This document shows positions 7,865-58,669 of a stretch of 64,000 bases of DNA, piece after piece. Within the stretch, counting starts at the first letter, position 1. Each line of letters starts with the position of its first letter. Origin of the DNA: Verrucomicrobiota bacterium. GTDB lineage: Bacteria; Verrucomicrobiota; Verrucomicrobiia; Limisphaerales; UBA9464. The translations under genes were made by a program, and so were the position numbers. Under the pieces are notes generated by a model. The model was not told where the DNA came from. It saw nothing but the letters and a program-made list of their open reading frames with translations, and ran no database searches. Location: assembly GCA_017309115.1 (NCBI GenBank), contig JAFLEF010000033.1, forward strand, positions 1 through 64,000. Direction: 5' to 3'.

Positions 7865-8554
7865 TCAGAGATAGCGGCGAACGGTGCCAAGGGCGAGCAA
7901 GCCAAGGCCCATGAGGGTCACGGTCCCAGCGCCATCGGGAACCGCAGTCGCGGTCAACGCGGCCAGGTAGAACTGGTCGCCACCGGTGCTGTCATAAGCG
8001 AAGGTGAAGGTCTTGCCCACGAGGTTCAGGTTGCTGATGTAGCCGACTCCATTGGGAAGCGTCTTCTCCTGACCATTCAGGAGGAACGTCGAACCTGAAG
8101 TCCAACTCGTGTAGTTGTGACCTTCGGAGCTCAGGTCGATCCGGGAGATAGAAACCAATCGGTCAAAGGTGATGGTCAGCGTTTCGCCGGCGGTGATGTT
8201 GTCGTCCGAAGTGTCCAACGGATTTTTGTGATAGACACCCAAGCCGGCGCGACGCTCTTCGGTCCAATTGCCTTCACGATCCTGGACCACTGAAGCAGTG
8301 CCTCCATTGTAGGTACCTTTGGCAGAAACCGTGATGCCACCGGCAGTGTAGTTCAGTGAGCCGCCGAAAGTGGTCGGAACACTCGAGCTGACGTTGTCGC
8401 TGGAGATCACGAAGTAGTCGGTCCCAGCAGTGCCATTGGGCAGGAAGTCCTGACCGGTGCGGCCAAGTTTGTAGAAGTCGAACTGAGCAGCGCTGACCGA
8501 AAGGCCGGCGGCCACTGCAGAAAGAGTGAGCGCAGATAGAGTCTTCAATTTCAT
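7865..8554 (-). CDS. VPDSG-CTERM-type exported protein
   Basis: 229 residues from the ATG at 8554, with GAGGAG about 12 bases upstream. Signal peptide MKLKTLSALTLSAVAAGLSVSA. The mature part is a Ser/Thr/Gly-rich beta domain with NITAGETLTITFDRLVSISR, as in single-domain exosortase substrates. The C-terminus reads VPDGAGTVTLMGLGLLAL, then GTVRRYL: a sorting motif, a membrane span and a basic tail, the VPDSG-CTERM arrangement known in Verrucomicrobia. The exosortase that would process it is not in the window. Function unknown; probably an extracellular matrix or surface protein. Confidence 0.85.
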   Translation of the reverse strand: MKLKTLSALTLSAVAAGLSVSAAQFDFYKLGRTGQDFLPNGTAGTDYFVISSDNVSSSVPTTFGGSLNYTAGGITVSAKGTYNGGTASVVQDREGNWTEERRAGLGVYHKNPLDTSDDNITAGETLTITFDRLVSISRIDLSSEGHNYTSWTSGSTFLLNGQEKTLPNGVGYISNLNLVGKTFTFAYDSTGGDQFYLAALTATAVPDGAGTVTLMGLGLLALGTVRRYL

Positions 8555-8760
8555 AGAGAGCAAGTGCTCCTCCTCGGCAGCAGCCGGGATGCCGATCGTG
8601 CAGAACGCCCTTACTAGCATTCTGATCAGCATGGCAAATCGCTGATTTTGAGGTTTCTACTGTCGAAGACTTGTGCGGAGGGGAATTGGCGCCCCCGGAT
8701 TCTTCGGCCTGTCAAACGAGCCGACACTGTTAAGTGATCCGACACCGAACCGCCTGGCCC

Positions 8761-9897
8761 TTACCGGGTGTTGGCCGGATCCCGTTGAAATCGGTCCAGG
8801 TTTCGGGCGCGGCTGACTGCGGTGTCATAGCTGATGGCGCAGCGCGCGTAGAGGTCATGGAGGCAATTGTCCATGACGACCTGACCCTCGCGGGAGCCGG
8901 TTTGCATAACGTTGCTCAGCTGATGGAGTTGGTTGTCCCGGATAATGGCCCGAACCGCGTTGCTTGCGACCAGGACTTCGTAGGCCAGTACCCGGTGGGT
9001 CCGATCCAAACTGGGGAGCAATTCCTGGGCGATGATCCCCTGAAGGCAGTTGGCGAGTTGCAGGATGACCTGCTTCTGCGCGTTGCCTTCGAATACCCCC
9101 ACAATTCGTTCCAGCGCGTGTCCCACCGACGGCGAGTGCAACGTGGCCAGAACCAAGTGTCCTGTCTCGGCCGCGGTCAAGGCTGTGGCAATGGCGTCGT
9201 GGTCCCGCATCTCTCCCACGCAAATGACGTCCGGATCCTGACGGAGCGCGTGGATCAGGGCGCGATTGAAGGAGCGAACATCGGTGAGCACCTCCTGCTG
9301 CACCACGATGGCGCGCTGGTTGGAATGCACGAACTCGATCGGGTCCTCAATCGTGAGGATCTTGCACCGCCGCTCCCGATTGATGAGGTCAATCATGTAG
9401 TTGAGCGTGGTGGTCTTGCCGGCGCCGGTGGGTCCGGTGACCAGGATTAGTCCGTTCGGCTTGCGGGCGAAGTCATCGACCCGAGAGGGCAACGTGAGCT
9501 CCTCCCGGGAAGGAATTCGGTCTCCGCAGAAACGGCAGCTCAGCTCAGTAAAGCCATTGCGCTTGTAACAGGTGACGCGAATGCGACCCGTTATCGCGTG
9601 TTGGATGGAAATACACAGTTCCCAGTCCTGTTCCAGTTTTCGCCGTTGCAGATCGTTCAACAGCGATTCGGCCATGGCGTGGCATTCCGGGCCGGCCAGG
9701 GCATCGGCGTCGGCCAGGATGATCTCACCGGTGACGCGGAACGCTGGAGGAACCCCGGCCACCAGATGCAGATCGGAGGCCCCTGACTTCTGGGCCTGAA
9801 CAATCAGTCGATCCAGGTAAGGGTGAATGTGTGACTCGCCGGGATGGACCCAGCTGGCCTGCGGTTCCAAGTCGGGGAGCGAGCCAAAACGGTTCAT
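8761..9897 (-). CDS. pilT: PilT-family type IV pilus retraction ATPase
   Basis: 378 residues, the usual PilT/PilU length. It carries Walker A GPTGAGKT (155-162), an Asp box ILTIEDPIEF (about 180-189), Walker B ICVGEMRD (225-232) and a His box ETGHLVLATLHS (about 244-255). An N-terminal PAS-like domain begins at YLDRLIVQAQKSGASDLHL. PilT hexamers power pilus depolymerisation at the inner membrane. It is the last gene of a tight leftward operon with a pseudopilin, a TPR protein and Ycf35/DUF2997 proteins, so it may serve a specialised pilus-like apparatus and not the pilus encoded at 52-58 kb. Confidence 0.95.
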   Translation of the reverse strand: MNRFGSLPDLEPQASWVHPGESHIHPYLDRLIVQAQKSGASDLHLVAGVPPAFRVTGEIILADADALAGPECHAMAESLLNDLQRRKLEQDWELCISIQHAITGRIRVTCYKRNGFTELSCRFCGDRIPSREELTLPSRVDDFARKPNGLILVTGPTGAGKTTTLNYMIDLINRERRCKILTIEDPIEFVHSNQRAIVVQQEVLTDVRSFNRALIHALRQDPDVICVGEMRDHDAIATALTAAETGHLVLATLHSPSVGHALERIVGVFEGNAQKQVILQLANCLQGIIAQELLPSLDRTHRVLAYEVLVASNAVRAIIRDNQLHQLSNVMQTGSREGQVVMDNCLHDLYARCAISYDTAVSRARNLDRFQRDPANTR

Positions 9898-9911
9898 GGG
9901 AGAGCGGGGGA

Positions 9912-10682
9912 TTACCGCAAGAGATCACGGACTTTCCCCAAAAGTTTGGGAACGAGTCCGCGCCGGTCCAGTTGCAGCAGACGTCGGCTCACAGCGTCGG
10001 AACGCGGCGCCAATTGTTCCGCCTGGATCCAGGATCGTCGGGCGTTCTCGGACCAGCCGAGGGCCAGTTGGCAGTCACCCATCAGGACCCAGTGGGCAAA
10101 CCGACCGGCATCTAGTTCGACGGCGGTTTGCGCCAACTTGAGGGCGGCGGCGAACTGGTCGTAGTAGTGCCGGATGCGTCCGGCGAGCCAGACGATCAGG
10201 GCATTGCGGGGCGCCAGGGAACACGCGCGTTCGAAGCAGAATTCCGCCCGACCTTCCTTGCGGGCCAGGAGGACATCGCCGCGCGCCAGCCAGATGTAGG
10301 GAGTGTCGCCGCGCTCCTCCAGGCTGGCATCCGAGAGAGCGAGGGCGGAGTCCAGATCGCCCAACCGCGCCAAGGCGACCCCCTTGGCCGCGAGCAGTTC
10401 CGGTGAGGTGGGCAGTCGTTCCAGGGCCTTGTCGGCCCACACTTGGGCCTCCCGGAATTCGCCGAGTTCGATTAAGGCGCGGACTTGACCAGCCCAGGCG
10501 GTGGATTGATTGGCGTCGAACTCAAGTACCCGGGCGTAGAAGCGTAGGGCCGACTCGAACTCCATCTGGCCGAAGGCGGTCTCGGCTTCGACCAGCCAGC
10601 GCGAGGCGTCCTGATTTTGACGCGATTCCGGTTGGAGTTCGGAAGCTCCACCCTCCAGTTCCAGATTTCCAAATCGGCTCAT
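9912..10682 (-). CDS. TPR-repeat protein
   Basis: About 256 residues from the ATG at 10682, which overlaps the stop of the upstream gene by 4 bp (ATGA), so translation is probably coupled. Consecutive helical repeats (for example AETAFGQMEFESALRFYARV and QVWADKALERLPTSPELLAA) match the tetratricopeptide pattern over most of the length. No signal peptide or membrane span is visible, so it is likely a cytosolic scaffold. In this operon it could link the PilT motor to the other components, as TPR proteins do in pilus biogenesis; that is inference. Confidence 0.8.
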   Translation of the reverse strand: MSRFGNLELEGGASELQPESRQNQDASRWLVEAETAFGQMEFESALRFYARVLEFDANQSTAWAGQVRALIELGEFREAQVWADKALERLPTSPELLAAKGVALARLGDLDSALALSDASLEERGDTPYIWLARGDVLLARKEGRAEFCFERACSLAPRNALIVWLAGRIRHYYDQFAAALKLAQTAVELDAGRFAHWVLMGDCQLALGWSENARRSWIQAEQLAPRSDAVSRRLLQLDRRGLVPKLLGKVRDLLR

Positions 10683-11182
10683 GGCAAGGTCTGCGGACGA
10701 AAGAACCAATGCGTAAACGGGCGGCCCAGCAGATTCCGGCGGGAGACCTGAGCCATATCGTTATAGACTTGGTTGACGGTGGAGAGTTCAACGCCGCGAA
10801 CCTGAGCCGTCAATGCGGGCCACACATACCAGGTGTCGGCGGGTAATCTAATGCTGCCGTCGGCGGGCGCGCCCGGCGGTCGGGGGAAGGTCTGACCGTT
10901 CACCCGGATTTGGTCGGGCGTGAATTCCAGTTGGTCCCCGGGCAAACCCCACACGGGTCCGAAATTGAGGCCTTCACGAATCAGGATTTCTCCATTGTCA
11001 CGGGCTTCGATGCGGACTCCCAAGTGTTCGCCTCGACGAATCGATTCGGGTTGGATCCAAGCTTGGAGAATGATCATCCGTCCCTCCCAGACGATGGGTC
11101 GGGCCACGTGGGTTTGGAACAAGTGGCTGGCCGGCCAGGAACTCGCCCGGGGCGGATCGAAGGCCGAGTTGGCGGCGGGCAT
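10679..11182 (-). CDS. Signal peptidase I-like protein without catalytic residues
   Basis: 167 residues from the ATG at 11182. An ATG at 11251 would overlap the upstream gene by 38 bp. The core resembles the S26 signal peptidase family: IRRGEHLGV, then GPVWGLPGDQLEF and IRVNGQTF, then LPADTWYVW, and a terminal VSRRNLLGRPFTHWFF like the family's 'v...iiGka'. The usual Ser-Met-x-Pro-Thr nucleophile region reads AWIQPES and the Lys/Arg before GLPGD is missing. I therefore read it as a non-catalytic homologue. It lies in an operon with a pseudopilin, suggesting a role in pilin-like substrate handling. Confidence 0.6.
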   Translation of the reverse strand: MPAANSAFDPPRASSWPASHLFQTHVARPIVWEGRMIILQAWIQPESIRRGEHLGVRIEARDNGEILIREGLNFGPVWGLPGDQLEFTPDQIRVNGQTFPRPPGAPADGSIRLPADTWYVWPALTAQVRGVELSTVNQVYNDMAQVSRRNLLGRPFTHWFFRPQTLP

Positions 11183-11213
11183 GGGAGAATCAGGCCGATG
11201 TCTTCGGACGCCT

Positions 11214-11414
11214 TTAGTGGTGCTGTTCCCCGCGCAACTCCACGTCCTCATCGGGTTCGTAGTAGCCGCTGGTGGGGCGCACCTCCCGGGTCTCGCCGAT
11301 CAGGGATTCCAGGAGCTTCAGCGCTTCCAAACAGCCCTTGCCGCGGAATCCGTCCAAGTGAATCTCCACCTCGCCGGTGGCACTGATGGTGATGTCGTAC
11401 TCGCGAAGTTTCAT
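11214..11414 (-). CDS. DUF2997 protein
   Basis: 66 residues from the ATG at 11414; upstream in-frame codons read back towards the preceding gene. The pattern YDITISATGEVEIHLDGFRG, then KGCLEALKLLESLIG and GYYEPDED, matches the small DUF2997 family ('G...v.G..G..C......le..lG.......yYe'). In cyanobacteria and other phyla DUF2997 is usually found next to DUF1257/Ycf35, as here (11885-12361), but with an AAA+ ATPase that is absent. Function unknown. Confidence 0.8.
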   Translation of the reverse strand: MKLREYDITISATGEVEIHLDGFRGKGCLEALKLLESLIGETREVRPTSGYYEPDEDVELRGEQHH

Positions 11415-11419
11415 GGCAG

Positions 11420-11869
11420 TTAGTTGGAGTAGTAGGGGGCGGAGCACAGGTGGGACTTGGGATACTCGGCGATCAGTTTTCCACCTTCCTTGACGGTCAG
11501 GATCACCGTTGAGTCGGGTGTTGCACTGGAGAAGGGAGTGAACGCGACCTTCTTCGAACGCAGGAAGCGTTCACAACGCGAGCTGACCGGACAGAGCTGC
11601 AGCATGGAGTCGAGCGTGACCGATCCGAACTGGGGATTCTCGGCGGCAAACTTGGAAAACTTAATTCGGAGTTCATCCACGTGGACCGCCTGATCGTTAT
11701 CCCCGGCAAAGGCGCGGACCCGTTGGTAGGCGCGGCCGACGGCGCCCAACAGGAGCGAGGCAAGGATGGCGATGATGGCCATCACGCAGAGCAGCTCGAT
11801 CAACGAAAAGGCGCGGCCCCGGTGGGGAACTCGTCCCGGAAGAAAGACTGCAAGGGGAGGGCAGTTCAC
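11420..11869 (-). CDS. Type IV pseudopilin-like protein
   Basis: 149 residues with a class III (prepilin) signal. A basic leader ending PHRGRA is followed by FSLIELLCVMAIIAILASLL, the N-methylated hydrophobic helix with the conserved Glu5. The residue before the cleavage site is Ala and not Gly, which prepilin peptidases tolerate. The globular C-terminal part contains SSRCERFLRSKK and ends SAPYYSN; it is not recognised. It lies 15 bp after the Ycf35-like gene and 5 bp before the DUF2997 gene. Placement in a pilus or type II secretion-like fibre is expected, but no partner pilins are near. Confidence 0.85.
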   Translation of the reverse strand: MNCPPLAVFLPGRVPHRGRAFSLIELLCVMAIIAILASLLLGAVGRAYQRVRAFAGDNDQAVHVDELRIKFSKFAAENPQFGSVTLDSMLQLCPVSSRCERFLRSKKVAFTPFSSATPDSTVILTVKEGGKLIAEYPKSHLCSAPYYSN

Positions 11870-11884
11870 GGGAGGCGGCTCAAG

Positions 11885-12361
11885 TTAGTTCTGCCAGTGG
11901 CGAACCGTGAGCCGAATGGCTTGGTTCTCGTCCACGGATTCCTCCACAAGATTCATGCCGCGCTCGGCCAGTTCGGTGCGGAGTTTCTGCAGGACGTACT
12001 GCTGCACCATTCGACCCCCGAGTTCCTCGCCCACCTGACGGAGTTCGTCCTCGGTGCAGCCGGCTCCGGTGACGCAGAAGGAAGCGCGGCCCCGGACATC
12101 TCGTCCAAATACCGCGGTGAATCCATCTCGGACCAGTCGGATCTGTTGGTCGCGCCCCAAAGTACCTGTGACGACCTCGCTGTGCGGGATTTCCAGTTCG
12201 AGGGTGTTGGACCGTTGGGACGCCTCACGTTCGAGGGCCAGTTGCTGTCGGGTTTCATCAATGACAGTGAAGCCCAGTTGGGCAGCGGCTGACAGAACCG
12301 CGGTACTTAGGGCGGGCCAAGCGGCGATGACCACCGGTGTGAGAACAGCGACAGCACTCAT
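11885..12361 (-). CDS. Ycf35/DUF1257 family protein
   Basis: 158 residues. The C-terminal half reads QQYVLQKLRTELAERGMNLV, then EES and IRLTVRHW, the signature of DUF1257/Ycf35, known from cyanobacterial and chloroplast genomes but of unknown function. The N-terminal part AVLSAAAQLGFTVIDE matches the family's opening. It is the first gene of a leftward six-gene operon and shares it with the family's usual partner DUF2997, split from it by a pseudopilin gene. The start is an ATG 80 bp after the helicase stop. Confidence 0.75.
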   Translation of the reverse strand: MSAVAVLTPVVIAAWPALSTAVLSAAAQLGFTVIDETRQQLALEREASQRSNTLELEIPHSEVVTGTLGRDQQIRLVRDGFTAVFGRDVRGRASFCVTGAGCTEDELRQVGEELGGRMVQQYVLQKLRTELAERGMNLVEESVDENQAIRLTVRHWQN

Positions 12362-12440
12362 TTGATTCGGGAAGGTTTCTGAAGCTTGGACCAGACGTGT
12401 CGATGATCGTTCTGTCCCAGTTTGGGCCAGCGTGAGATTT

Positions 12441-15029
12441 TCAACCGACGGGTCCCAACCGTTCCCAGCGCAACTGGGGTTCCTTGGCGGCTCGTGAGGC
12501 CGCCAAGTCCACGGTGAATTCGGCCATCCAGTCGTTGGCGGCCTCCGGATCGACCAGGATCTGCTGAACCTTCCAATGCGAGCGGTCTTCCGACGGGATG
12601 ACGTAGGTATGCCGGGAGTTGCGGGCTTCCGGATTGAGGCAAAGCAGACGGTGGCTGGCGAAGTAAGTGTTCATCGTCTCCGCCCAGCGAGTCTCGGGTT
12701 TGCTGGCGGGTTCGCCCTCCGCCGGCGGAGCCACGCTGACCACTCCGAGCGCTGTCTCCCACTCCTCGTTGGCGAGGGCGCGGAGGAACGTGAAGATCTT
12801 CGTCCGAATCGCGGCGAGAAACGCCTTGGTGTCGCGCGTGACGTCCTGGGCGGCTTCTTCAGCCCCGGGCGGCCGAACCTCCGGTGCTTCCGCTCGGGCG
12901 GTGTGCTCCGGATTGCGCATCTTCTCCCACTCATCGAGCAGGCTGGAATCCACCTGACGCAGCATCGCTCGGAGGTATTCCTCCATGTCCAGGACCGCCT
13001 CGGTTTTGGCGGCCTCGGGCACCGTCTGGGCGAGCACCTTATACACGCTGTTCAGATGACGAAGCAGCACGCCCTCCGCCCGTTGCAGTTCGTACAGTTT
13101 CAGATAATCGGCAAAGGAGCGGAACTCTTCGAACATCTCCCGGGCGATGGATTTGGGCCGGATGTTTTCCTGGCCGACCCACGGATGGCGCGCCGCCCAG
13201 GCGTTGAAGGTTTCGTAAATGAATTCCCGGCGGGGCTTGGGGTACTCGAGCTTCTCGAGTTCCTCCATACGTTGATCGAACTCCATGCCCTGGGCCTTCA
13301 GTTCCGCCACCTTCTGGCCCTTTAGCCGACTCAACTGTGCTCGCAACACCACGTCGGGATCTTCCAGGATTGACTCGACCAGCGTGATGACATCGAAGGC
13401 GTAGTCTGGCGCTTCCCGATTCAGCAGCGGCAGGGTGTCGAGTAGGAACAGGGACAACGCTTGGTTCAGAGAGAAGTCTTCCGGCAGGGCTACATTCACC
13501 CGCAGCTTGGGTTCGGATGATCCCCGGGGAGCGAGCGTCACGATGTCTCGTTCCACCAACGAACGAAACAACTGCCAGGCGCGCCGTACGTGGGACTTCT
13601 TCTGATTCGGCGAATCATGACAGCGACGGATCAGATCCTGCATCGCCGCACAGCCGTCCCCCGGTCGGGCCAGTACGTTGAGCAGCGTGGCGTGGCTGAC
13701 CTGAAATCGGGAAGTGAGGCGTTCGGGTGGGGCGGTCTGCAACCGCTCGAAGGTCTTGCGGTCCCAGTTAACGAAGTTTTTGTCCGGCGCCTGGCGCTTC
13801 ACGACCTTCTTGCCGTCGCGCTTCGCCTTCTCCTCCAGCTTGAGGTTCTCCACGACGTGCTCCGGGGCCTGGGCGACGACCCAGCCAACATTGTCGAAGC
13901 CCTTGCGTCCGGCCCGACCGGCGATCTGATGGAAATCCCGAACGGAAAGAATGCCGACCTTCTGTCCGTCGAACTTGCACAGCCGGGTGAAGAGAACCGT
14001 GCGAATGGGAACGTTGATGCCGACGCCGAGGGTGTCGGTTCCGCAGATCACCTTGAGGCGTCCGCGTTGTGCCAACTGTTCCACCAGAATTCGGTACTTG
14101 GGCAGCAGTCCGGCGTGGTGCAGACCGATGCCGTGGCGCAGCCACTTCTTGAGTTCCGGACCATAGGGGCTGCTGAACTTGAATCCCTCCAAGTCGCTGG
14201 CGACGGCGGCCTTTTCGTCGCGGGAGGCGACGTTGATGCTGGTGAAGTCTTGAGCGCTTTCCGCGGCTTCAGCCTGAGTGAAGTGTACGACATAGACCGG
14301 TCCTTTGCCGTCGGCGAGGAGTTGTTCCAACGTCTGGGCGAGGGGTGTCTCGGCGTAGGAGAATTCCAAGGGTACCGGGCGGGTGGCCGACTTTACGATG
14401 GTGGTGGGTCGGCCGTTCAGTCGGGTTAACTCATCGGCGAAAAAGCTCGTGTCACCGAGCGTCGCGGACATCAACAGGAAGCGCGTCTGCGGCAGCGTGA
14501 GCAACGGCACTTGCCAGGCGACGCCGCGGTCGCGATCCGAGTAGTAATGAAACTCGTCCATGACCACGTCCTGCACCTTTGCCGCCGGGCCATCGCGGAG
14601 GGCGATGTTGGCGAGGATCTCGGCGGTGCAGCATAGGATGGGGGCGTCGTGATTAACCGTGGCGTCGCCGGTGGCCAGGCCGACATTCTCGGGTCCGAAT
14701 TCGCGGCACAACGACAGCCACTTCTCGTTTACCAGCGCCTTGATCGGGCAGGTGTAGACCGAGCGGCGACCCTGGGCGAGGGACTGGAAGTGAAGGGCAG
14801 CGGCAACCAGGGATTTCCCGGAACCTGTGGGGGTGTTGAGGATGACGTTCTTGTTCTCGAACAGTTCCAGGATCGCCTCCTCTTGGGCGGGATAGAGGCT
14901 CAGTCCCTGGGCGGTCACATAATCCAGAAAACCGCCCAGCACGGCGTCGTTGCCGGTGGAACCGACTCGGAGGAGTTGATCGTAAAGCGTCACCGCGTCT
15001 AGGAAGCCACGAACCGGCCGCAAGAGCAC
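12441..15029 (-). CDS. Ski2-like DEAD/DEAH helicase with DUF3516-type C-terminus
   Basis: 862 residues from a GTG. Motif I is TPTGSGKS near residue 63, motif II is the unusual DEFHYY (DExH), motif III MSATLG, and motif [14 protein letters not shown]. The [18 protein letters not shown] segment is typical of Ski2/Mtr4-like superfamily 2 helicases. The long C-terminal part, ending with [20 protein letters not shown], corresponds to DUF3516 helicases of Actinobacteria and Verrucomicrobia. The likely role is ATP-dependent RNA remodelling or turnover. It runs in the same direction as the Ycf35 operon, 80 bp upstream, so read-through is possible. Confidence 0.9.
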
Positions 15030-52105: not shown

Positions 52106-53977
52106 ATGCTCAAAACGTCGAAGACATTTCTGGCGGTCGATTTCGGGGCCGGGACTCTGAAGATCGCGGAGCTGGCGCCGGCCGAGAATAGCGGCCTGCG
52201 TCTGCTGCGTTATGGTCTCAAACCGCTTGGCCTTGCGGGATCGCAAGACGCGGCGAGAGAGGGTGTGGTCAAAAAGGCGTTGGCCGAATTGTTGACGGAA
52301 GGTGGATTCACCTCGAAGGACGTCAACTTGTGCGCGCCTGGCTTCCAGGTGTTCTCGAAGTTCGTCAAGTTGCCTCCGGTCGATACTTCGAAGGTAACCC
52401 AGATCATCCAATACGAAGCGCAACAGAATGTTCCGTTTCCTCTGGCCGAAACGGCGTGGGACTACCAAATCCTGGGAACGAGTGCTAACGGAGAGCTGGA
52501 GGTTCTGCTCGTCGCGATTAAATCCGACGTGGTGGAAAAGCAGATCTTCGGATCAGGTGAAGCGTCTGGTCTGCGGATGCAGACGGTGGATGCGTCGATT
52601 GGCGCCTTGGCGAACTCCTTCCGCTACAACTACGCCGATCAGGAAGGTTGCAGCCTGCTGATCGATATTGGTGCCAAAACGAGCAACGTGCTGTTGTTTG
52701 AGCCGAACAAGTACTACGCGCGCAGTGTCAATGTGGGGGCCAACGCGATCACCCAAGAGTTTGCGGCCGAGAGCAAGCTGCGTTTCGACGAGGCAGAGAA
52801 ATTCAAAGTTAGCGACGGTTTTGTGAGTCTGGGTGGCGCCTACGAAGAACCAGATAATCCGCGAGTGGCTGCCGTGTCCAAGGTGGCCCGTAATGTTCTG
52901 ACTCGCCTGCATCTTCAGGTGAATCAGACGATCCAGTTTTACCGCACGCAACAGGGCGGCGGTGCACCGGTTCGCGTTTATTTGTGCGGTGGTGGGTCCC
53001 TAATGCCTTACGCCGCACAGTTTTTCGAAGAGAAATTGGCCTTGCCGGTGGAGTTCTTCAACCCCTTCCGCAACATTCAGATTGATCCCTCGGTCGATGT
53101 CGCGCAGTTGGAAGTGGTCGCTCCCCAATTCGGAGAAGTGATCGGCTTGGGGCTCCGGAATGTGGCGCAGTGCCCGGTGGAATTGAATCTGATGCCACGG
53201 GCCTCACTTACCCGGCAGCAGTTCAATGCCAAAAAGCCGTTTTTGATCGCCGCGGCCTACGCCGCTGTACTGGGCGTCTTCGCTGTCGGTTGGTTTTTCT
53301 CCCGAGTGGCCGAGGTCAGGCGTGATGGTGTTGCCAAAATCGACCAACAATTGCAGCCCTTGGAATCCACCAAGGCTCAGCTCCAGGCGGCCGAGGAACG
53401 GCTTAAGAAGGTCACTGAAGACGCCACTCAAACCGGTCGGTGGATTGAAGATCGACTAACGTGGGCTCAAATCCTGGGTCAGTTGGGCGTAGTCCTCAAG
53501 GGAACTGAGACAGAGTCAAAGGCGCGTTTGGGAGTACCCGTCGGAATCTGGATCGATACCTTGATATCAACGGAACCTACCAAAGATTTGGCTCAAGTTG
53601 AGGAAGAGTCCTCCGGGGGTGGTGCTGCGAACTTCTATCGGATGGATCCGGTCTTGGCCCGCCGTTACGGACTGATTCCCCGCGGGCCAGCAGGCGAAGG
53701 CTCCGGCGAGGGTGGTGGTGAAGAGAAACCGAAGCCCAAAGCTGCATCCAATTCGACCAACGAGATCGCGGTCATCAATCTGACGATTCGAGCGGTGAAT
53801 CTGAATTCCAAGGCGAACAGTGAAATCGCCTATGCGGTGGAGAAGGCCATGAAGAGCTGCGAACTGTTTGACGATAAGGAGACCCAGCTCGCCGGCACCC
53901 TCGAACAGTTGGCGGAGAATGCGACCTCGTTCTCATTCCCGCTCAAGGTGAAGCTTAAACGTCCGATCAAACTTTGA
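52106..53977 (+). CDS. pilM: PilM-PilN fusion, type IV pilus assembly
   Basis: 623 residues. The N-terminal part is a PilM-type actin-like ATPase: FLAVDFGAGTLKIAELAPAE, then CSLLIDIGAKTSNVLLFEPN and VRVYLCGGGSLMPYAAQFFE. After about residue 385, AKKPFLIAAAYAAVLGVFAV is a membrane span followed by a coiled coil (RDGVAKIDQQLQPLESTKAQ), the layout of PilN, so two usual neighbours are joined. It resembles Amuc_1101 of Akkermansia in order and length. It heads an operon with an Amuc_1100-like protein, an Amuc_1099-like protein and a secretin. Confidence 0.9.
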   Translation: MLKTSKTFLAVDFGAGTLKIAELAPAENSGLRLLRYGLKPLGLAGSQDAAREGVVKKALAELLTEGGFTSKDVNLCAPGFQVFSKFVKLPPVDTSKVTQIIQYEAQQNVPFPLAETAWDYQILGTSANGELEVLLVAIKSDVVEKQIFGSGEASGLRMQTVDASIGALANSFRYNYADQEGCSLLIDIGAKTSNVLLFEPNKYYARSVNVGANAITQEFAAESKLRFDEAEKFKVSDGFVSLGGAYEEPDNPRVAAVSKVARNVLTRLHLQVNQTIQFYRTQQGGGAPVRVYLCGGGSLMPYAAQFFEEKLALPVEFFNPFRNIQIDPSVDVAQLEVVAPQFGEVIGLGLRNVAQCPVELNLMPRASLTRQQFNAKKPFLIAAAYAAVLGVFAVGWFFSRVAEVRRDGVAKIDQQLQPLESTKAQLQAAEERLKKVTEDATQTGRWIEDRLTWAQILGQLGVVLKGTETESKARLGVPVGIWIDTLISTEPTKDLAQVEEESSGGGAANFYRMDPVLARRYGLIPRGPAGEGSGEGGGEEKPKPKAASNSTNEIAVINLTIRAVNLNSKANSEIAYAVEKAMKSCELFDDKETQLAGTLEQLAENATSFSFPLKVKLKRPIKL

Positions 53978-53978
53978 T

Positions 53979-54983
53979 ATGGAGTGGGTCAAAAAAAACC
54001 TCGGTTTCGTCATCAGCCTTGCGGTCGCCGTCGTGCTGGTCGGTGTTGGCGTGTTTTACCTCTTGGGCACCAAGAGCGAAGCTGATGGCGTCGATGCCGA
54101 GCTGGCGGCCAAAAACAGTCAACTGGATGAAATAATCCAACGCCCAGTCTTCCCGGATTCGGCAAACATCCAACTCGCCAAAGAAGAAGAGGCCCGCGTC
54201 GGAAATTTCATCAAGGAAGCTAGAAAACACTTTACTGAATTGGCCAAGCCGGAGGGTCTGGACACCGCCGGATTCAAGTCACATTTGGAAGCAACGATCA
54301 CCGAGCTCCTCCAGGAAGCTGATCGGGCGGGAGTTAAACTACCCGACAAAGGCAGCGGTCCATCCTTTGGGTTCACTTTCGACGATCAACGTAAGCAGCT
54401 GCAGCTCCAAGCCAGCACATTGGCTCCGCTTACGGTCCAACTAGGGGATATTAAGACGATCGCCCAGATTCTGTTTGATGCGAAGGTGCCTTCACTCGTT
54501 TCCTTTAAACGAGCTCCGGTGGGTACGAATGAAACCAGCGGAGCACATCTTCTGAGCAAAAAGATCACCACCAATTCAGCGTTAGGTGCGGTGACCTATC
54601 CCTACGAAGTTGTCTTCCAAGGTTTCAGCCCTGAATTGGCGGCAGTGCTCACCGGTCTCATCGAGTCGCCGGATGCATTCATCGTCAAGACCTTGAACGT
54701 GGAGCGAGGAAACCTCGAGGTCACCCCGAATCCCGCAGCGGCAGTCCCGATTACCGGCCCAGCGAATCCGTATGGGATGGACGCCAACTTGGCCCGCCGG
54801 TACGGAATCAATCGTGGACCAGCCGCCCCTCAGGTAGTTGCGCCGACAGCGGTCAATCGCCCCGGTGAAGTGGTTCTCGAAGAGAAGCCTTTGCGGGTTA
54901 CCTTGGGAATTGAACTCGTGAAACTTTTGCCTCAGGAAACGGCCAAACCCGCACGACCGGCTCCGGCCCAAGCCACCAACTAG
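53979..54983 (+). CDS. PilO-like/Amuc_1100-like pilus protein
   Basis: 334 residues, start 1 base after the pilM stop. One N-terminal span FVISLAVAVVLVGVGVFYLL, a coiled coil (about 38-110, GVDAELAAKNSQLDEIIQRP) and a periplasmic alpha/beta domain (LGDIKTIAQILFDAKVPSLV). By position between the PilM-PilN fusion and the next pilus genes, length and topology, it matches the Akkermansia Amuc_1100 lineage, an inner-membrane alignment (PilO/GspM-like) subunit. The sequence similarity was judged by eye. Confidence 0.72.
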   Translation: MEWVKKNLGFVISLAVAVVLVGVGVFYLLGTKSEADGVDAELAAKNSQLDEIIQRPVFPDSANIQLAKEEEARVGNFIKEARKHFTELAKPEGLDTAGFKSHLEATITELLQEADRAGVKLPDKGSGPSFGFTFDDQRKQLQLQASTLAPLTVQLGDIKTIAQILFDAKVPSLVSFKRAPVGTNETSGAHLLSKKITTNSALGAVTYPYEVVFQGFSPELAAVLTGLIESPDAFIVKTLNVERGNLEVTPNPAAAVPITGPANPYGMDANLARRYGINRGPAAPQVVAPTAVNRPGEVVLEEKPLRVTLGIELVKLLPQETAKPARPAPAQATN

Positions 54984-55014
54984 TCTCTGACCGCCACTTT
55001 TTCCCTCCGGCTAC

Positions 55015-55791
55015 ATGGATTTTCTGAAGAAACACTACGAGAAGATCATTCTCAGTGTGGTCCTGCTCGTGGTAGCGGCGGCCGCATTCTGGCTCACTCA
55101 GAAGGTAAGCGAGGTTCAAACCTCGTTGGACGAGAGCCTCCAAACTCGGGTTCGCGGCAACAAAAAGCAGCTTCAGCCGGTGGACTTGACCAACGCTATC
55201 ACGGCCGTTCAGCTCATCTCCAAGCCCGTAGCGCTTGATCTTTCGGGAGATCACAACGTTTTCAATCCGGTACGCTGGATCCGAGGGGCTGATGGGGTGC
55301 CCAAGCCCGACCCGCGTTTGGAGCTTTCGACGACCCTCAAGCTGACCCAGACGCGGCCCCTCTATCTCAGCATAACTTACCTGGGACCGACGGGGATTGG
55401 AGATCCCTACCGTTACCAATTCAGCATCGAACAGCAATCCGCCAAGAAGGTGAGCGATCGCCGTCCGGTCACTCTTTCGCTTACCGAGGGAACCAAGAAC
55501 AATTTCTTCCGACTCCAGGAAGTTCGCGGTCCCAAGGATACCTCAGGTGAGGTCGTGATTGAATTGGTCGGAGGGGAGCGGGCGACGCTCACCAAAGGCA
55601 AGCCGTTCCAAAAAACCACTGGTTATATGGCTGACCTCCGCTTCGAAAACCGCGATTTTCTTGGAAAGCGTGCCGATGACAATCTCGTCTTGGCCGGAAC
55701 CACTTACAAGATTGTTGCCATTGGGAAAGATGAACTTGTAGTTTCAGCGCCCAACGGCACCCGCACGACGATAAAACTCTCCTCTAACTAG
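55015..55791 (+). CDS. PilP/Amuc_1099-like pilus protein
   Basis: 258 residues with an N-terminal span (IILSVVLLVVAAAAFWLTQK) and no signal-peptidase site. A periplasmic domain follows, rich in beta strands: VFNPVRWIRGADGVPKPDPR, then SEQ-like VSDRRPVTLSLTEGTKNNFF and TTYKIVAIGKDELVVSAPNG. It lies between the Amuc_1100-like gene and the secretin, the place of PilP/Amuc_1099. It may link the inner-membrane complex with the secretin. 31 bp follow the previous stop. Confidence 0.65.
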   Translation: MDFLKKHYEKIILSVVLLVVAAAAFWLTQKVSEVQTSLDESLQTRVRGNKKQLQPVDLTNAITAVQLISKPVALDLSGDHNVFNPVRWIRGADGVPKPDPRLELSTTLKLTQTRPLYLSITYLGPTGIGDPYRYQFSIEQQSAKKVSDRRPVTLSLTEGTKNNFFRLQEVRGPKDTSGEVVIELVGGERATLTKGKPFQKTTGYMADLRFENRDFLGKRADDNLVLAGTTYKIVAIGKDELVVSAPNGTRTTIKLSSN

Positions 55792-55837
55792 ACGTCTCTC
55801 CGCGTCTCCGACTTCTCGATTTCCAACCGCAAGTACC

Positions 55838-58669
55838 ATGTTGAAACTGTCTCGTCTCCTCAGCCTGTTGCTGCTCTTCGCTGCCGTCCAGCCGGCCCTC
55901 TCACAGTCGCCGAGCCAGGTCGCCGAAGAAGAGTCCGTCCGTCGCCAGGAAAAACTGATTCTCCTTCGCAAGACCATTGAAGCCGCGCAAGCGGCCAATG
56001 TGGCTAAGGATTATCAGGCCACTGCCAAACTTTACGAAGACGCTTGGACCTTAACGGACCAGCTGGGATCTGCGGCGGAGGCGGAACGGGCAACGGTACG
56101 AACTGGCTTGTCAGCGGCTCGACTGGCACTCGCGACCGCAGCCGCCAAACGAGGAGACTATCGCGAAGCCAATACTCAAGTGACGAGAGCGTTGAAGGTC
56201 GACCCTTCCAACGCCGCCGCCCAGAGTTTCAAGGACGAGAATGACAAACGGATGGCCAATTTGGTTGGAAAATTGCCGTCGGAGGAGGCCCTAGCTCAGA
56301 TCCCGCCCGCCAAGGCACAGGACCTGAAGGCTGCCACCCTGGCCCAAGACGGCAAACTGCTGTTCGAAGCGGGTAAGTTGGATGAGGCCGAAAAGTTGCT
56401 TCTCGAGGCCAAGGCTTTGCAGCCGGAGAATCGGACCGCCAATTACTACCTGGAACTTCTTCAGCAAGCACGGTTTGGCCGGGCGGCGCAGGTAAAGAAA
56501 CTCACTACGCGCGAGATGCTACTCGAAGTGGAGCAAGCTTGGAGTCTTCCGAAGAACAGCCTTCCCAATGCAAATCCCTTCGCGCGGACCAATCTGATCT
56601 ACACTGGTGCGGGCCGCCAGATGATCCAAAACAAGTTGGATCGAATCATCCTCAACGAAGTGAAGTTCGACGGCGTACCTCTCTCCGAGGTTGTCAAATA
56701 CCTCGATGAGCAGGCGCGCGCACGGGACCCGGAAAAGAGAGGCCTTAACTTCATTATCAACTCAACGATGGACGTGGTGAGTGCTTCGGCGGTTCCCCAG
56801 ATTGATCCGAATACTGGCGCACCGATTCCCGCCGCTCCCGCTGAACCGGTCGACCTCAATAGTGTCATCATTCGACTCAGCCCAGGCTTGAGGAACATTC
56901 GATTGGCCGATGCCATCGACGCGATTGCCAAAGTGGCCGAACGGCCCCTGAAGTATTCTATCGAAGACTACGCGATCGTGTTCACTCAGAGACTTCCGGA
57001 GTCCCCTCAGTTGTACACTCGTTCGTTCCGAGTTGATCCCAACACGTTCATGCAAGGTCTGGAGGCTGTTGTCGGCTTCCCCTTTGGTAACCTTCAGGTT
57101 GGTGGTGGCGGCGGCGGTGGTGGTGGTGGCGGCGGCGGCGGCGGCGGTGGCGGCGGTCAAGGAGGACAGGGTGGCATTTTCACCGTCCCCCGTGTTGAGG
57201 CTTCTTCGGGTGTAGCTCAAGGCGGCGGTGGTGGTGGTGGTGGTGGTGCTGTCGGCGGCGGCGGCCAAGGCGGCCAAGGTGGGGCGGGCATCAGCAACGT
57301 CACTCGCACCAATGAAATGGCCAACGTCCAGATCATGGTTCGCAACTTCTTCACGGCGTGCGGTGTAAACTTTCCGATCACTGCGCTCCCCGGCCAGGGC
57401 GGCGCCGGATTTGGCCAGCAGCAGGCGTTCGGAGCTAACGGATTGGTGGATCCCAATGCCAACCAAAAGGCCCTCTTCTTCAACGATCGAACGGGTATCC
57501 TCTTCGTTCGAGCGACTCTCTCTGATCTCGATATCATTGAGAAAGCGATTGAAGCGTTGAACGTCGCTCCCCCGCAGGTGGAGATCGAAGCCAAGTTTGC
57601 CGAAGTCACCCAGTCCGATGCGAAAGCGTTGGGATTCCAATGGTGGTTCGGTAACTGGACAGTCGGTGGGGATCGCGTCGGTGTTCAGGGCGGTACAGCG
57701 CCGTCCATGGGAAGTCCTGCGACTTCCGGATCCGCCGCCAATCCTTACGGAACATTCCCTGGCGTGCCTTTCTCGTCTGGCGTGCCCGGAGTTCCGGATA
57801 ACTTGGTCAACACTACGATCCCGCCCGCCAGTACCGATGGCAATTTGACCGGCGGACTTCGAAACACCTACACGGATGCGAATCGCAACACGACGACCAT
57901 CCCGACCGTGGCGACGATTACCGGTATTCTGACAAATCCCCAGTTCCGGGTCGCGATCGCCGCTCTGGAGCAGCGCGATGGTGTCGATCTGTTGGCCGCT
58001 CCTAAGGTGACCACGTTGAGCGGACGCCAAGCGCAGATTGTTACTGCCGACGTGCGGACGATCGTAACCGGCGTCAACATCCAGCAGACTGCTAGCGGTG
58101 GCGCCGGCAACACCGCTGCTGGGGGATTCAATAACGGTGGTGGTGGTGTGGCACCCGCGGCCAACTACAACGTTCAAACCATTCCCTTCGGACCGGAGTT
58201 GAACGTGATTCCCTATGTGTCGGCGGACGACGTGTCGATCCAAATGACCTTGATTCCCGTTGTGACCGACTTCGTGGGATACGACGATCCCGGTCCGTTC
58301 GTTCCGCAGGCCCAATCGGTGGCCGGCAATACCGTCGGCATTCCTTTGACGGCGACTCTGCCGCTGCCGCGCCTACGGACCCGCCAGGTGGTTACCTCAG
58401 CCATTGTGTGGGACGGTCAAACGGTGGTTCTGGGTGGATTGATTGCTGAAGACACCCGTAAGGCCCGCGACAAGGTTCCTATCTTGGGTGACCTTCCCTT
58501 GGTCGGACGTCTGTTCACCAGCGAGGCCTCGGCCACCGTCAAAAAGAACCTTCTGATCTTCGTGACTCCGACGATCATCGATCCCTCAGGGCGTCGCGTT
58601 AATGATCCAAACGCGATGCCGTACGATCCGAATACCATTCCTCCGCAGTCCGGAGCACGTTCCAAGTAA
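55838..58669 (+). CDS. pilQ: Type IV pilus secretin (PilQ/GspD family, Amuc_1098-like)
   Basis: 943 residues with signal peptide LLSLLLLFAAVQPALSQ. N-terminal TPR-like region (residues about 40-205), then N-domain segments (LSPGLRNIRLADAIDAIAKV). Two glycine tracts (about 421-442 and 461-480) precede a cysteine/aromatic stretch. The secretin C-domain starts at VEIEAKFAEVTQSDAKALGF and ends VPILGDLPLVGRLFTS, then KKNLLIFVTPTII. It forms the outer-membrane pore of the pilus. It lies 46 bp after the previous gene in the pilM operon. Confidence 0.93.
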   Translation: MLKLSRLLSLLLLFAAVQPALSQSPSQVAEEESVRRQEKLILLRKTIEAAQAANVAKDYQATAKLYEDAWTLTDQLGSAAEAERATVRTGLSAARLALATAAAKRGDYREANTQVTRALKVDPSNAAAQSFKDENDKRMANLVGKLPSEEALAQIPPAKAQDLKAATLAQDGKLLFEAGKLDEAEKLLLEAKALQPENRTANYYLELLQQARFGRAAQVKKLTTREMLLEVEQAWSLPKNSLPNANPFARTNLIYTGAGRQMIQNKLDRIILNEVKFDGVPLSEVVKYLDEQARARDPEKRGLNFIINSTMDVVSASAVPQIDPNTGAPIPAAPAEPVDLNSVIIRLSPGLRNIRLADAIDAIAKVAERPLKYSIEDYAIVFTQRLPESPQLYTRSFRVDPNTFMQGLEAVVGFPFGNLQVGGGGGGGGGGGGGGGGGGGQGGQGGIFTVPRVEASSGVAQGGGGGGGGGAVGGGGQGGQGGAGISNVTRTNEMANVQIMVRNFFTACGVNFPITALPGQGGAGFGQQQAFGANGLVDPNANQKALFFNDRTGILFVRATLSDLDIIEKAIEALNVAPPQVEIEAKFAEVTQSDAKALGFQWWFGNWTVGGDRVGVQGGTAPSMGSPATSGSAANPYGTFPGVPFSSGVPGVPDNLVNTTIPPASTDGNLTGGLRNTYTDANRNTTTIPTVATITGILTNPQFRVAIAALEQRDGVDLLAAPKVTTLSGRQAQIVTADVRTIVTGVNIQQTASGGAGNTAAGGFNNGGGGVAPAANYNVQTIPFGPELNVIPYVSADDVSIQMTLIPVVTDFVGYDDPGPFVPQAQSVAGNTVGIPLTATLPLPRLRTRQVVTSAIVWDGQTVVLGGLIAEDTRKARDKVPILGDLPLVGRLFTSEASATVKKNLLIFVTPTIIDPSGRRVNDPNAMPYDPNTIPPQSGARSK

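What the first reader, a model, noticed from the sequence alone, without database searches (positions are those of the whole stretch)
8761..12361. Six-gene operon joining Ycf35/DUF1257, DUF2997, a pseudopilin, a non-catalytic signal-peptidase-like protein, a TPR protein and PilT
All six genes run leftward with gaps of 15, 5, 31, -4 and 14 bp, so they are almost certainly one transcript. Ycf35 and DUF2997 are a known but unexplained pair, usually seen with an AAA+ ATPase. Here that partner is missing and a PilT hexameric ATPase, a lone pseudopilin and a signal-peptidase relative are present instead. This suggests the Ycf35/DUF2997 module can work with a pilus-like or secretion apparatus. The pilus proper is encoded 40 kb away.
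Basis: partly seen in the sequence, partly recalled or inferred. Interest (0 to 1): 0.76.

Follow-up and report, generated by a model that had tools for sequence, protein, structure and literature searches.

The report
Sigma-factor operon pairing Ycf35 with PilT
These genes are the displaced second half of an apparently undescribed gene set, found in several bacterial phyla and probably switched on by its own sigma factor, that joins two mystery proteins known from algae and phages to a motor of the kind that pulls in bacterial pili.

Summary
The six-gene operon is real, with the stated gaps. Five genes (Ycf35/DUF1257-like, DUF2997, signal-peptidase-fold protein, TPR, PilT) keep this order in 13 of 14 Ycf35 loci among 59 relatives and in most of 49 named loci, including Verrucomicrobiota, Lentisphaerota and Planctomycetota. 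Relatives carry AAA+ (often with ECF sigma and radical SAM genes) directly upstream; in this genome that half lies on another contig. The window copy is altered: a pilin is inserted, the signal-peptidase-like protein lacks its membrane half, and the ycf35 promoter has lost its -35. A promoter motif, GCGTGAC-N16-(T/G)GTC(C/T)AA, precedes most ECF and ycf35 genes and, in 4 of 46 genomes tested, the ordinary pilT. This PilT forms one clade apart from 20 other PilTs, with its motor motifs kept. Best reading: an ECF-induced accessory module acting on type IV pili through its own PilT. The module is well supported; its biochemical role is inferred.

The parts
11885..12361 (-). Ycf35/DUF1257-like protein, 158 aa
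   Evidence: ORF; PF06868 below cut-off alone, 32 of 47 aligned sequences match, one of them canonical; present in 14 of 59 genomes
11420..11869 (-). Pseudopilin with prepilin N-terminus; inserted here, not part of the conserved module
   Evidence: N_methyl 3.7e-7; absent at this place in the other 13 Ycf35 loci; ycf35-DUF2997 gaps in 46 of 47 measured named loci are 2-345 bp (the 47th, L140, has TPR between)
11214..11414 (-). DUF2997 protein, 66 aa
   Evidence: PF11211 7.5e-11; G14, G22, G25, C28, G40 invariant in 17 sequences of several phyla
10679..11182 (-). Signal-peptidase-fold (S26-like) protein, 167 aa, shortened: the membrane-spanning region of most relatives is absent in frame
   Evidence: alignment and hydropathy; S26 above cut-off in relative L040; catalytic Lys position not Lys in the family profile. 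Two of 48 other loci (L108, L129) also lack it in the piece found
9912..10682 (-). TPR protein, 256 aa
   Evidence: TPR_2 3.7e-12; present in 29 of 59 genomes
8761..9897 (-). PilT-A, PilT-family motor ATPase, 378 aa
   Evidence: TIGR01420 above cut-off; one clade with 40 orthologues, support 100/100; motifs kept
12386..12392 (-). GGTCCAA, -10-like element of the ECF-type promoter, 24 nt before the ycf35 start; matching -35 not kept (ACAGAAC at the right spacing)
   Evidence: PWM scan: score -4.1; 11.7% of control pieces score as well
12441..15029 (-). DUF3516 DEAD-box helicase, upstream neighbour on the same strand; not part of the module
   Evidence: PF12029 1.4e-156; no tblastn hit in the 18 other loci searched
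52106..58669 (+). Type IV pilus genes (PilM-like, Amuc_1100-like, Amuc_1099-like, secretin), possible target
   Evidence: NCBIfam

Best explanation
The window holds the second of two units of a conserved module that, in Verrucomicrobiota, is led by an ECF sigma gene. Unit 1: ECF sigma, small 'sm86', radical SAM enzyme, small 'sm70', p97-type AAA+ ATPase. Unit 2: Ycf35, DUF2997, membrane-bound dead signal-peptidase-fold protein, TPR, PilT-A. Shown by computation: the gene set, its order, its linked presence and absence, the shared promoter motif, and motor motifs in PilT-A. Inferred mechanism: an envelope or redox signal frees the ECF sigma, which switches on both units. PilT-A, an extra motor beside the genome's ordinary PilT, docks on the shared type IV pilus base and drives retraction or disassembly. 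The AAA+ ATPase, with Ycf35 and DUF2997 as small adaptors and the TPR protein as scaffold, remodels components at that base. The dead signal-peptidase domain holds pilin-like or signal-peptide substrates without cutting them. The radical SAM enzyme modifies or primes a partner. In this species the units are separated and unit 2 is altered.
For: All ten genes in 22 of 49 named loci, collinear in 21. Nested presence in 59 genomes: Ycf35 14, DUF2997 of this kind 15 and S26 15 (the same 15), rSAM 17, AAA 31, TPR 29, PilT-A 32; AAA and PilT-A shared by 30, also where they lie on different contigs. Motif GCGTGAC-N16-(T/G)GTC(C/T)AA before 24 of 28 ECF genes, spacer 16 in all 24; a site of score 10 or more before 31 of 47 ycf35 genes, nearly all ending 10-35 nt from the start; before TPR in 4 loci of genomes without Ycf35. 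Same motif before the ordinary pilT in 4 of 46 genomes tested, all four carrying the system; about 0.07 such sites expected. In the two of these whose downstream genes I read, the order is pilT-pilB-pilC (G040, G044). PilT-A (41 sequences): Walker A, Asp and His boxes in 41, Walker B in 40, AIRNLIRE-like motif in 35; best solved relatives are PilTs.
Against: No contact, assay or expression data. A T4P-type PilC domain is in 59 of 59 genomes, so co-occurrence cannot tie PilT-A to pili. No ECF motif before the window's pilus genes or before the ordinary pilT in 42 of 46 genomes tested, this one included; the contrast 4 of 30 against 0 of 16 is not significant (Fisher 0.28), and two of the four sites were found before the test. 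ECF, sm86 and sm70 were not detected in seven loci outside Verrucomicrobiota (L133, L135-L140), and 16 of 47 ycf35 genes have no good site. L140 has the module without an adjacent PilT. The AIRNLIRE-like pattern fails in 6 of 41, five of them outside Verrucomicrobiota. Co-occurrence p values ignore phylogeny. The window's own ycf35 promoter is weak.
Confidence: 0.48

Rival explanations
1. An iron-sulphur or redox-stress protein-quality module. AAA+, Ycf35, DUF2997 and radical SAM are the working core, and PilT-A has been recruited as a membrane motor with no role in pili.
For: In cyanobacteria DUF2997 and ycf35 sit with the 4Fe-4S ferredoxin fed7, needed for oxidative, metal and iron-limitation tolerance (PMC4284462, passages). 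A phage carries ATPase, DUF1257 and DUF2997 close together, with no PilT named in the 8.4 kb viewed. L140 has the module without an adjacent PilT.
Against: PilT-A keeps PilT's motor boxes and, in 35 of 41, the AIRNLIRE-like motif. The ECF motif stands before the ordinary pilT in four genomes. AAA, TPR and PilT-A persist together where Ycf35, DUF2997 and S26 are lost.
Confidence: 0.29
2. An anti-phage or mobile-element system: patchy, with a phage-related AAA+ core, whose PilT withdraws pili used as phage receptors.
For: Patchy presence (5 of 240 genomes of the phylum; 14 of 59). A DUF1257 relative is in 5 phage records, beside an ATPase and DUF2997 in the one viewed. The AAA domain matches IetA models (1.9e-20) and a planctomycete radical SAM weakly matches viperin models (7e-7; below NCBIfam's cut-off).
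Against: No PADLOC match at 0.001 for the window's Ycf35, DUF2997, S26 and TPR proteins or for L040's radical SAM, S26 and sm70; the IetA match covers the shared AAA domain only. A conserved promoter and long gene order are unlike a typical defence island (inference).
Confidence: 0.09
3. In this species the operon is a decaying remnant: split from its AAA+ half, promoter eroded, membrane protein shortened, pilin inserted.
Against: All six frames are open with tight spacing. The PilT branch is not among the long ones (0.15; median 0.091) and its motor motifs are kept. The ECF, rSAM and AAA genes persist on another contig, and that ECF gene keeps a good promoter.
Confidence: 0.25
4. Chance neighbours or hitch-hiking genes with no joint function.
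For: Gene order alone can be inherited.
Against: Core order shared across phyla; joint presence when unlinked, and a common promoter motif on separated halves in several genomes.
Confidence: 0.03

Closest known systems
AAA+ / DUF1257 (Ycf35) / DUF2997 triad of a phage and of mobile-like contigs
   Same: Same three families close together; the phage RHph_I4 ATPase is 34% identical over nearly full length to the module's AAA (E 8e-92); a bacterial copy with DUF1257 above cut-off (L050)
   Different: In L047 and L050 the module's radical SAM, S26, TPR and PilT proteins give no tblastn hit, and none is named in the phage stretch viewed; the AAA of L050 and L047 is 46 and 45% identical to the module's
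Cyanobacterial cluster duf2997-ycf35-fed7
   Same: The small-protein pair with an iron-sulphur partner (PMC4284462, passages)
   Different: Ferredoxin in place of a radical SAM enzyme; no PilT, TPR or S26-like gene in the cluster as described in the passages seen
PilT/PilU retraction ATPases
   Same: TIGR01420 above cut-off; motor boxes, and in 35 of 41 an AIRNLIRE-like motif, which PMC6762196 (passages) says is absent in PilU
   Different: Clade with 100/100 support apart from 20 other PilTs of nine of the 59 genomes; encoded with the module, not with PilB and PilC
Signal peptidase I (Peptidase S26)
   Same: Sequence match in relatives (PF10502 above cut-off; PDB profile match 1.3e-6)
   Different: Catalytic lysine position (recalled) not Lys; extra membrane segments; N-terminal Cys pairs in L133, L136 and L140

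Membership tests
DUF1257/Ycf35 | Match to PF06868 above gathering score | tested here: inconclusive
   Window protein 19.2 bits against 22.2; 32 of 47 aligned sequences match at E<=0.01, one of them the canonical L050 protein; hhalign to single canonical sequences weak (probability 4 and 7%, E 0.009 and 0.005)
DUF1257/Ycf35 | Paired with DUF2997 and an AAA+ of the triad type | tested here: met
   DUF2997 in the operon; AAA upstream in 42 of 49 named loci and on contig C40 here
DUF2997 | Match to PF11211 above gathering score | tested here: met
   42.2 bits against 24.1
PilT/PilU T4P ATPase | TIGR01420 cut-off; Walker A, Asp, Walker B, His boxes | tested here: met
   376.6 against 319.1 bits; boxes in the window and in 41, 41, 40 and 41 of 41 PilT-A sequences
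PilT (not PilU) | AIRNLIRE-like C-terminal motif | tested here: met
   VRAIIRDNQLHQL in the window; relaxed pattern in 35 of 41 PilT-A, the strict RN[LI][IV]RE in 19 of 41, not in the window; 0 of 20 other PilTs fit either pattern; criterion from PMC6762196
PilT (not PilU) | Drives pilus retraction | not testable with these tools
   Needs genetics and microscopy
Signal peptidase I (S26) | Ser/Lys catalytic dyad | tested here: not met
   Lys position (recalled) of the KR-V-x-G-x-PGD box is not Lys in the family profile nor in the window; the Ser region was not settled by the alignment
AAA+ (CDC48/p97 type) | AAA domain above cut-off | tested here: met
   L040 AAA 96.6 bits against 21.2; best solved matches CDC48/p97. 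The name Ycf46 is recalled, not tested
ECF-sigma regulon | Shared promoter motif before the sigma gene and target units | tested here: met
   For the family of loci. For the window's own ycf35 promoter not met (score -4.1). Recognition by this sigma factor itself is inferred

The most novel reading that the evidence does not exclude
A dedicated, stress-switched pilus-control machine in which a p97-like AAA+ remodeller and a second PilT motor act together. Ycf35 and DUF2997, unexplained in chloroplasts, cyanobacteria and phages, are the adaptors of this AAA+ family. The same AAA+/Ycf35/DUF2997 core is re-used with different partners: ferredoxin in cyanobacteria, phage genes in phages, PilT in these bacteria.
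Probability: 0.32. Interest if true: 0.87.

Novelty: new variant of a known kind. Interest (0 to 1): 0.7.

Why it matters
Ycf35 and DUF2997 occur in plastids, cyanobacteria and phages without a known role. Here they sit in a module with a motor (PilT), a remodeller (AAA+), a sigma factor and a recognisable promoter, which makes their function directly testable. The promoter links the module to the ordinary pilT in a few genomes, pointing to a regulated second retraction motor in bacteria whose pili are little studied.

Tried and rejected
Pilin as a functional member: rejected. It sits inside the operon only in the window (1 of 14 Ycf35 loci); similar pilins are scattered (21 places in 20 other genomes of 59, a lower bound because many genomes had more candidates than were scored). 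Pilin genes near PilT-A in several other loci are not convincing, as first-look pilin candidates number 8-195 per genome.

A PilC of its own for PilT-A: PF00482 in 59 of 59 genomes, no visible link with the module.

Giant fused AAA gene: the 5810-codon frame was an artefact of a masked stretch.

Shortened S26 as unique to the window: not so; two of 48 other loci (L108 and L129, the latter the same contig as G044's) also lack the membrane part in the piece found.

Literature: PMC text searches for Ycf35/DUF1257, DUF2997, Ycf46/slr0374, a five-term pilus query and ECF + type IV pil + Verrucomicrobi listed no title or abstract describing this module; the last two found no papers. Searches showed 25 of 33 and 25 of 35 papers. 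Only open-licence papers were searched.
Full report
Observation. The six minus-strand genes are present with gaps of 15, 5, 31, -4 and 14 bp. DUF2997, the prepilin N-terminus, TPR and PilT are firm; DUF1257 and S26 are below the Pfam cut-offs for the window proteins but rest on relatives: 32 of 47 aligned sequences match PF06868 at E<=0.01, one of the 32 being a canonical DUF1257 included for comparison, and the relative L040 passes the S26 cut-off.

Conservation. Among 59 genomes (own included) Ycf35 occurs in 14. In 13 of the 14 the order ycf35-DUF2997-S26-TPR-PilT is complete; in the other (G042) contig ends split it. G040 holds DUF2997-S26-TPR-PilT at a contig end. The pilin between ycf35 and DUF2997 is found only in the window. 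The S26-like protein has 286-334 residues in the 43 complete relatives of the named set, with membrane segments in the 14 shown, after a YYPPRA-type N-terminus in Verrucomicrobiota. The window protein keeps a DPPRA start and the S26 domain but lacks the stretch between, with no membrane segment predicted. Two of 48 other loci, L108 and L129, are also short.

The missing partner. Directly upstream of ycf35 in many relatives lies a 521-residue AAA+ protein (L040), preceded there by a 70-residue protein, a radical SAM enzyme, an 86-residue protein and an ECF sigma factor. In the window's genome ECF, radical SAM, the 70-residue gene and AAA (80% identical) lie together on contig C40; part of the AAA gene is masked. 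Of 49: AAA upstream in 42, with three of the seven misses having under 1 kb upstream; PilT downstream in 43, with five of the six misses at contig ends and one (L140) real; all ten genes in 22; the genes that were detected are collinear in 47. ECF, the 86- and the 70-residue genes were not detected in L133 and L135-L140, the loci titled Victivallis, Phycisphaerae, Planctomycetota or planctomycete, and Ca. Fischerbacteria; there the shared core is AAA-ycf35-DUF2997-S26-TPR-PilT, with radical SAM upstream in L135-L139; in L140 the order differs and PilT is absent. Other titles include Verrucomicrobia, Limisphaerales, Geminisphaera and Omnitrophota; a few titles (Rubrivivax, Akkermansia) may be mislabelled bins (inference). 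In an even draw of 240 genomes of the phylum, 5 have Ycf35, own included, so the module is accessory and patchy.

Linkage in presence. DUF2997 of this kind and S26 occur in the same 15 of 59 genomes; Ycf35 in 14 of these (in G040 the contig ends beside DUF2997); radical SAM in these 15 plus two; AAA in 31, TPR in 29, PilT-A in 32. DUF2997 in G053 and a second copy in G040 belong to the other, canonical kind and were left out of the 15. I assigned AAA orthologues at 62% identity or more (G024 by a fragment) and PilT-A at about 60% or more, by reading the tables. AAA and PilT-A are shared by 30 (Fisher 2.4e-13, not corrected for phylogeny), also where AAA, TPR and PilT-A lie on different contigs (G009, G015, G021). 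Genomes such as G004 and G050 keep ECF-AAA-TPR-PilT-A without Ycf35, DUF2997, S26 and radical SAM: a core and an added layer lost from both sides of AAA.

Promoter. Upstream of 28 ECF genes (many closely related) a seed search found GCGTGAC-N16-(T/G)GTC(C/T)AA or a near form in 24, spacer 16 each time. With a PWM, 1.3 Mb of loci gave 104 sites of score 12 or more: 42 before ECF, 41 before ycf35, 4 before TPR, 3 before the 70-residue gene, 1 before radical SAM and 13 elsewhere; loci with shuffled bases gave 17. Some loci overlap, so these are not 104 independent sites. 31 of 47 ycf35 genes have a site of 10 or more within 200 bp, nearly all ending 10-35 nt from the start; 16 have none. In loci without AAA, L111, L112, L122, L123 and L128 score 9.4-24.2; L094 and L096 score 3.3. 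The own ECF gene scores 18.5. The window's ycf35 keeps GGTCCAA at 12392-12386 but not the -35 (score -4.1).

Link to the pilus. The scan of other loci hit sites just before the ordinary pilT in G040 and G044, where the order is pilT-pilB-pilC. I then tested 400 bp before that pilT in 46 of the 59 genomes: 4 of 30 with PilT-A (G040, G044, G048, G042; scores 25.6, 20.4, 13.4, 13.0), 0 of 16 without it; the contrast alone is not significant (Fisher 0.28). Real DNA of other loci and the window gave no site of 12 or more in 458 kb counting both strands; a Markov model expects 0.07 sites of 13 or more in the stretch searched, p 7e-7. The first two sites prompted the test; without those two genes, two sites against 0.06 expected give p 0.002. 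This genome's pilT and the window's pilus genes have no site.

PilT-A. 41 module PilTs form one clade against 20 other PilTs from nine of the 59 genomes, support 100/100. Walker A, Asp and His boxes fit simple patterns in 41 of 41, Walker B in 40; a relaxed AIRNLIRE-like pattern fits 35 of 41 PilT-A and 0 of 20 others. PilU lacks that motif (PMC6762196, passages). Best solved relatives are PilTs.

Relation to known things. ATPase, DUF1257 and DUF2997 occur close together in phage RHph_I4 (ATPase 34% identical to the module's AAA, E 8e-92), and AAA/DUF1257/DUF2997 in a contig of G040. In cyanobacteria DUF2997 and ycf35 go with ferredoxin fed7 (PMC4284462, passages). So the module is a new, larger setting of a known but unexplained core.

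Verdict. A conserved module, ECF-led in Verrucomicrobiota, is about 95% likely (own estimate). A role in type IV pilus retraction or disassembly is the best guess, at about 0.48 (lowered slightly after the recount, because the AIRNLIRE-like motif fails in 6 of 41 and the ECF part is not seen in seven loci). How AAA, Ycf35, DUF2997, radical SAM and the dead signal-peptidase domain act is inferred only.

Noticed in passing
window 52106-58669: Type IV pilus genes resembling Akkermansia Amuc_1098-1101 (PilM-like, Amuc_1100-like, Amuc_1099-like, secretin); no ECF motif before them.
   Followed up: partly
L159 (phage MN988552.1 59511-67945): Rhizobium phage RHph_I4 carries an ATPase, DUF1257 and DUF2997 close together; five phage records hold the DUF1257 relative, neighbours viewed in one.
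   Followed up: partly
L050 (G040:C236), L047 (G053:C279): Canonical AAA/DUF2997 loci (DUF1257 shown in L050) among genes that look like mobile-element genes; G040 holds both this and the PilT-linked kind.
   Followed up: partly
L075 10015-12316 (G000 contig C2): Two further PilT-family genes in tandem in the window's genome, outside the PilT-A clade.
   Followed up: no
L136 530-2269: A secretin-like gene about 3 kb upstream of the module's radical SAM gene in a planctomycete.
   Followed up: no
L133, L136, L140 start of the S26-like gene: Cys pairs suggesting a zinc ribbon before the PP(R) motif outside Verrucomicrobiota.
   Followed up: no
window 7865-8632: Protein with a weak VPDSG-CTERM match (below cut-off), downstream of the operon.
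   Followed up: no
L111, L115, L117, L043: Two S26-like genes in tandem within the module.
   Followed up: no
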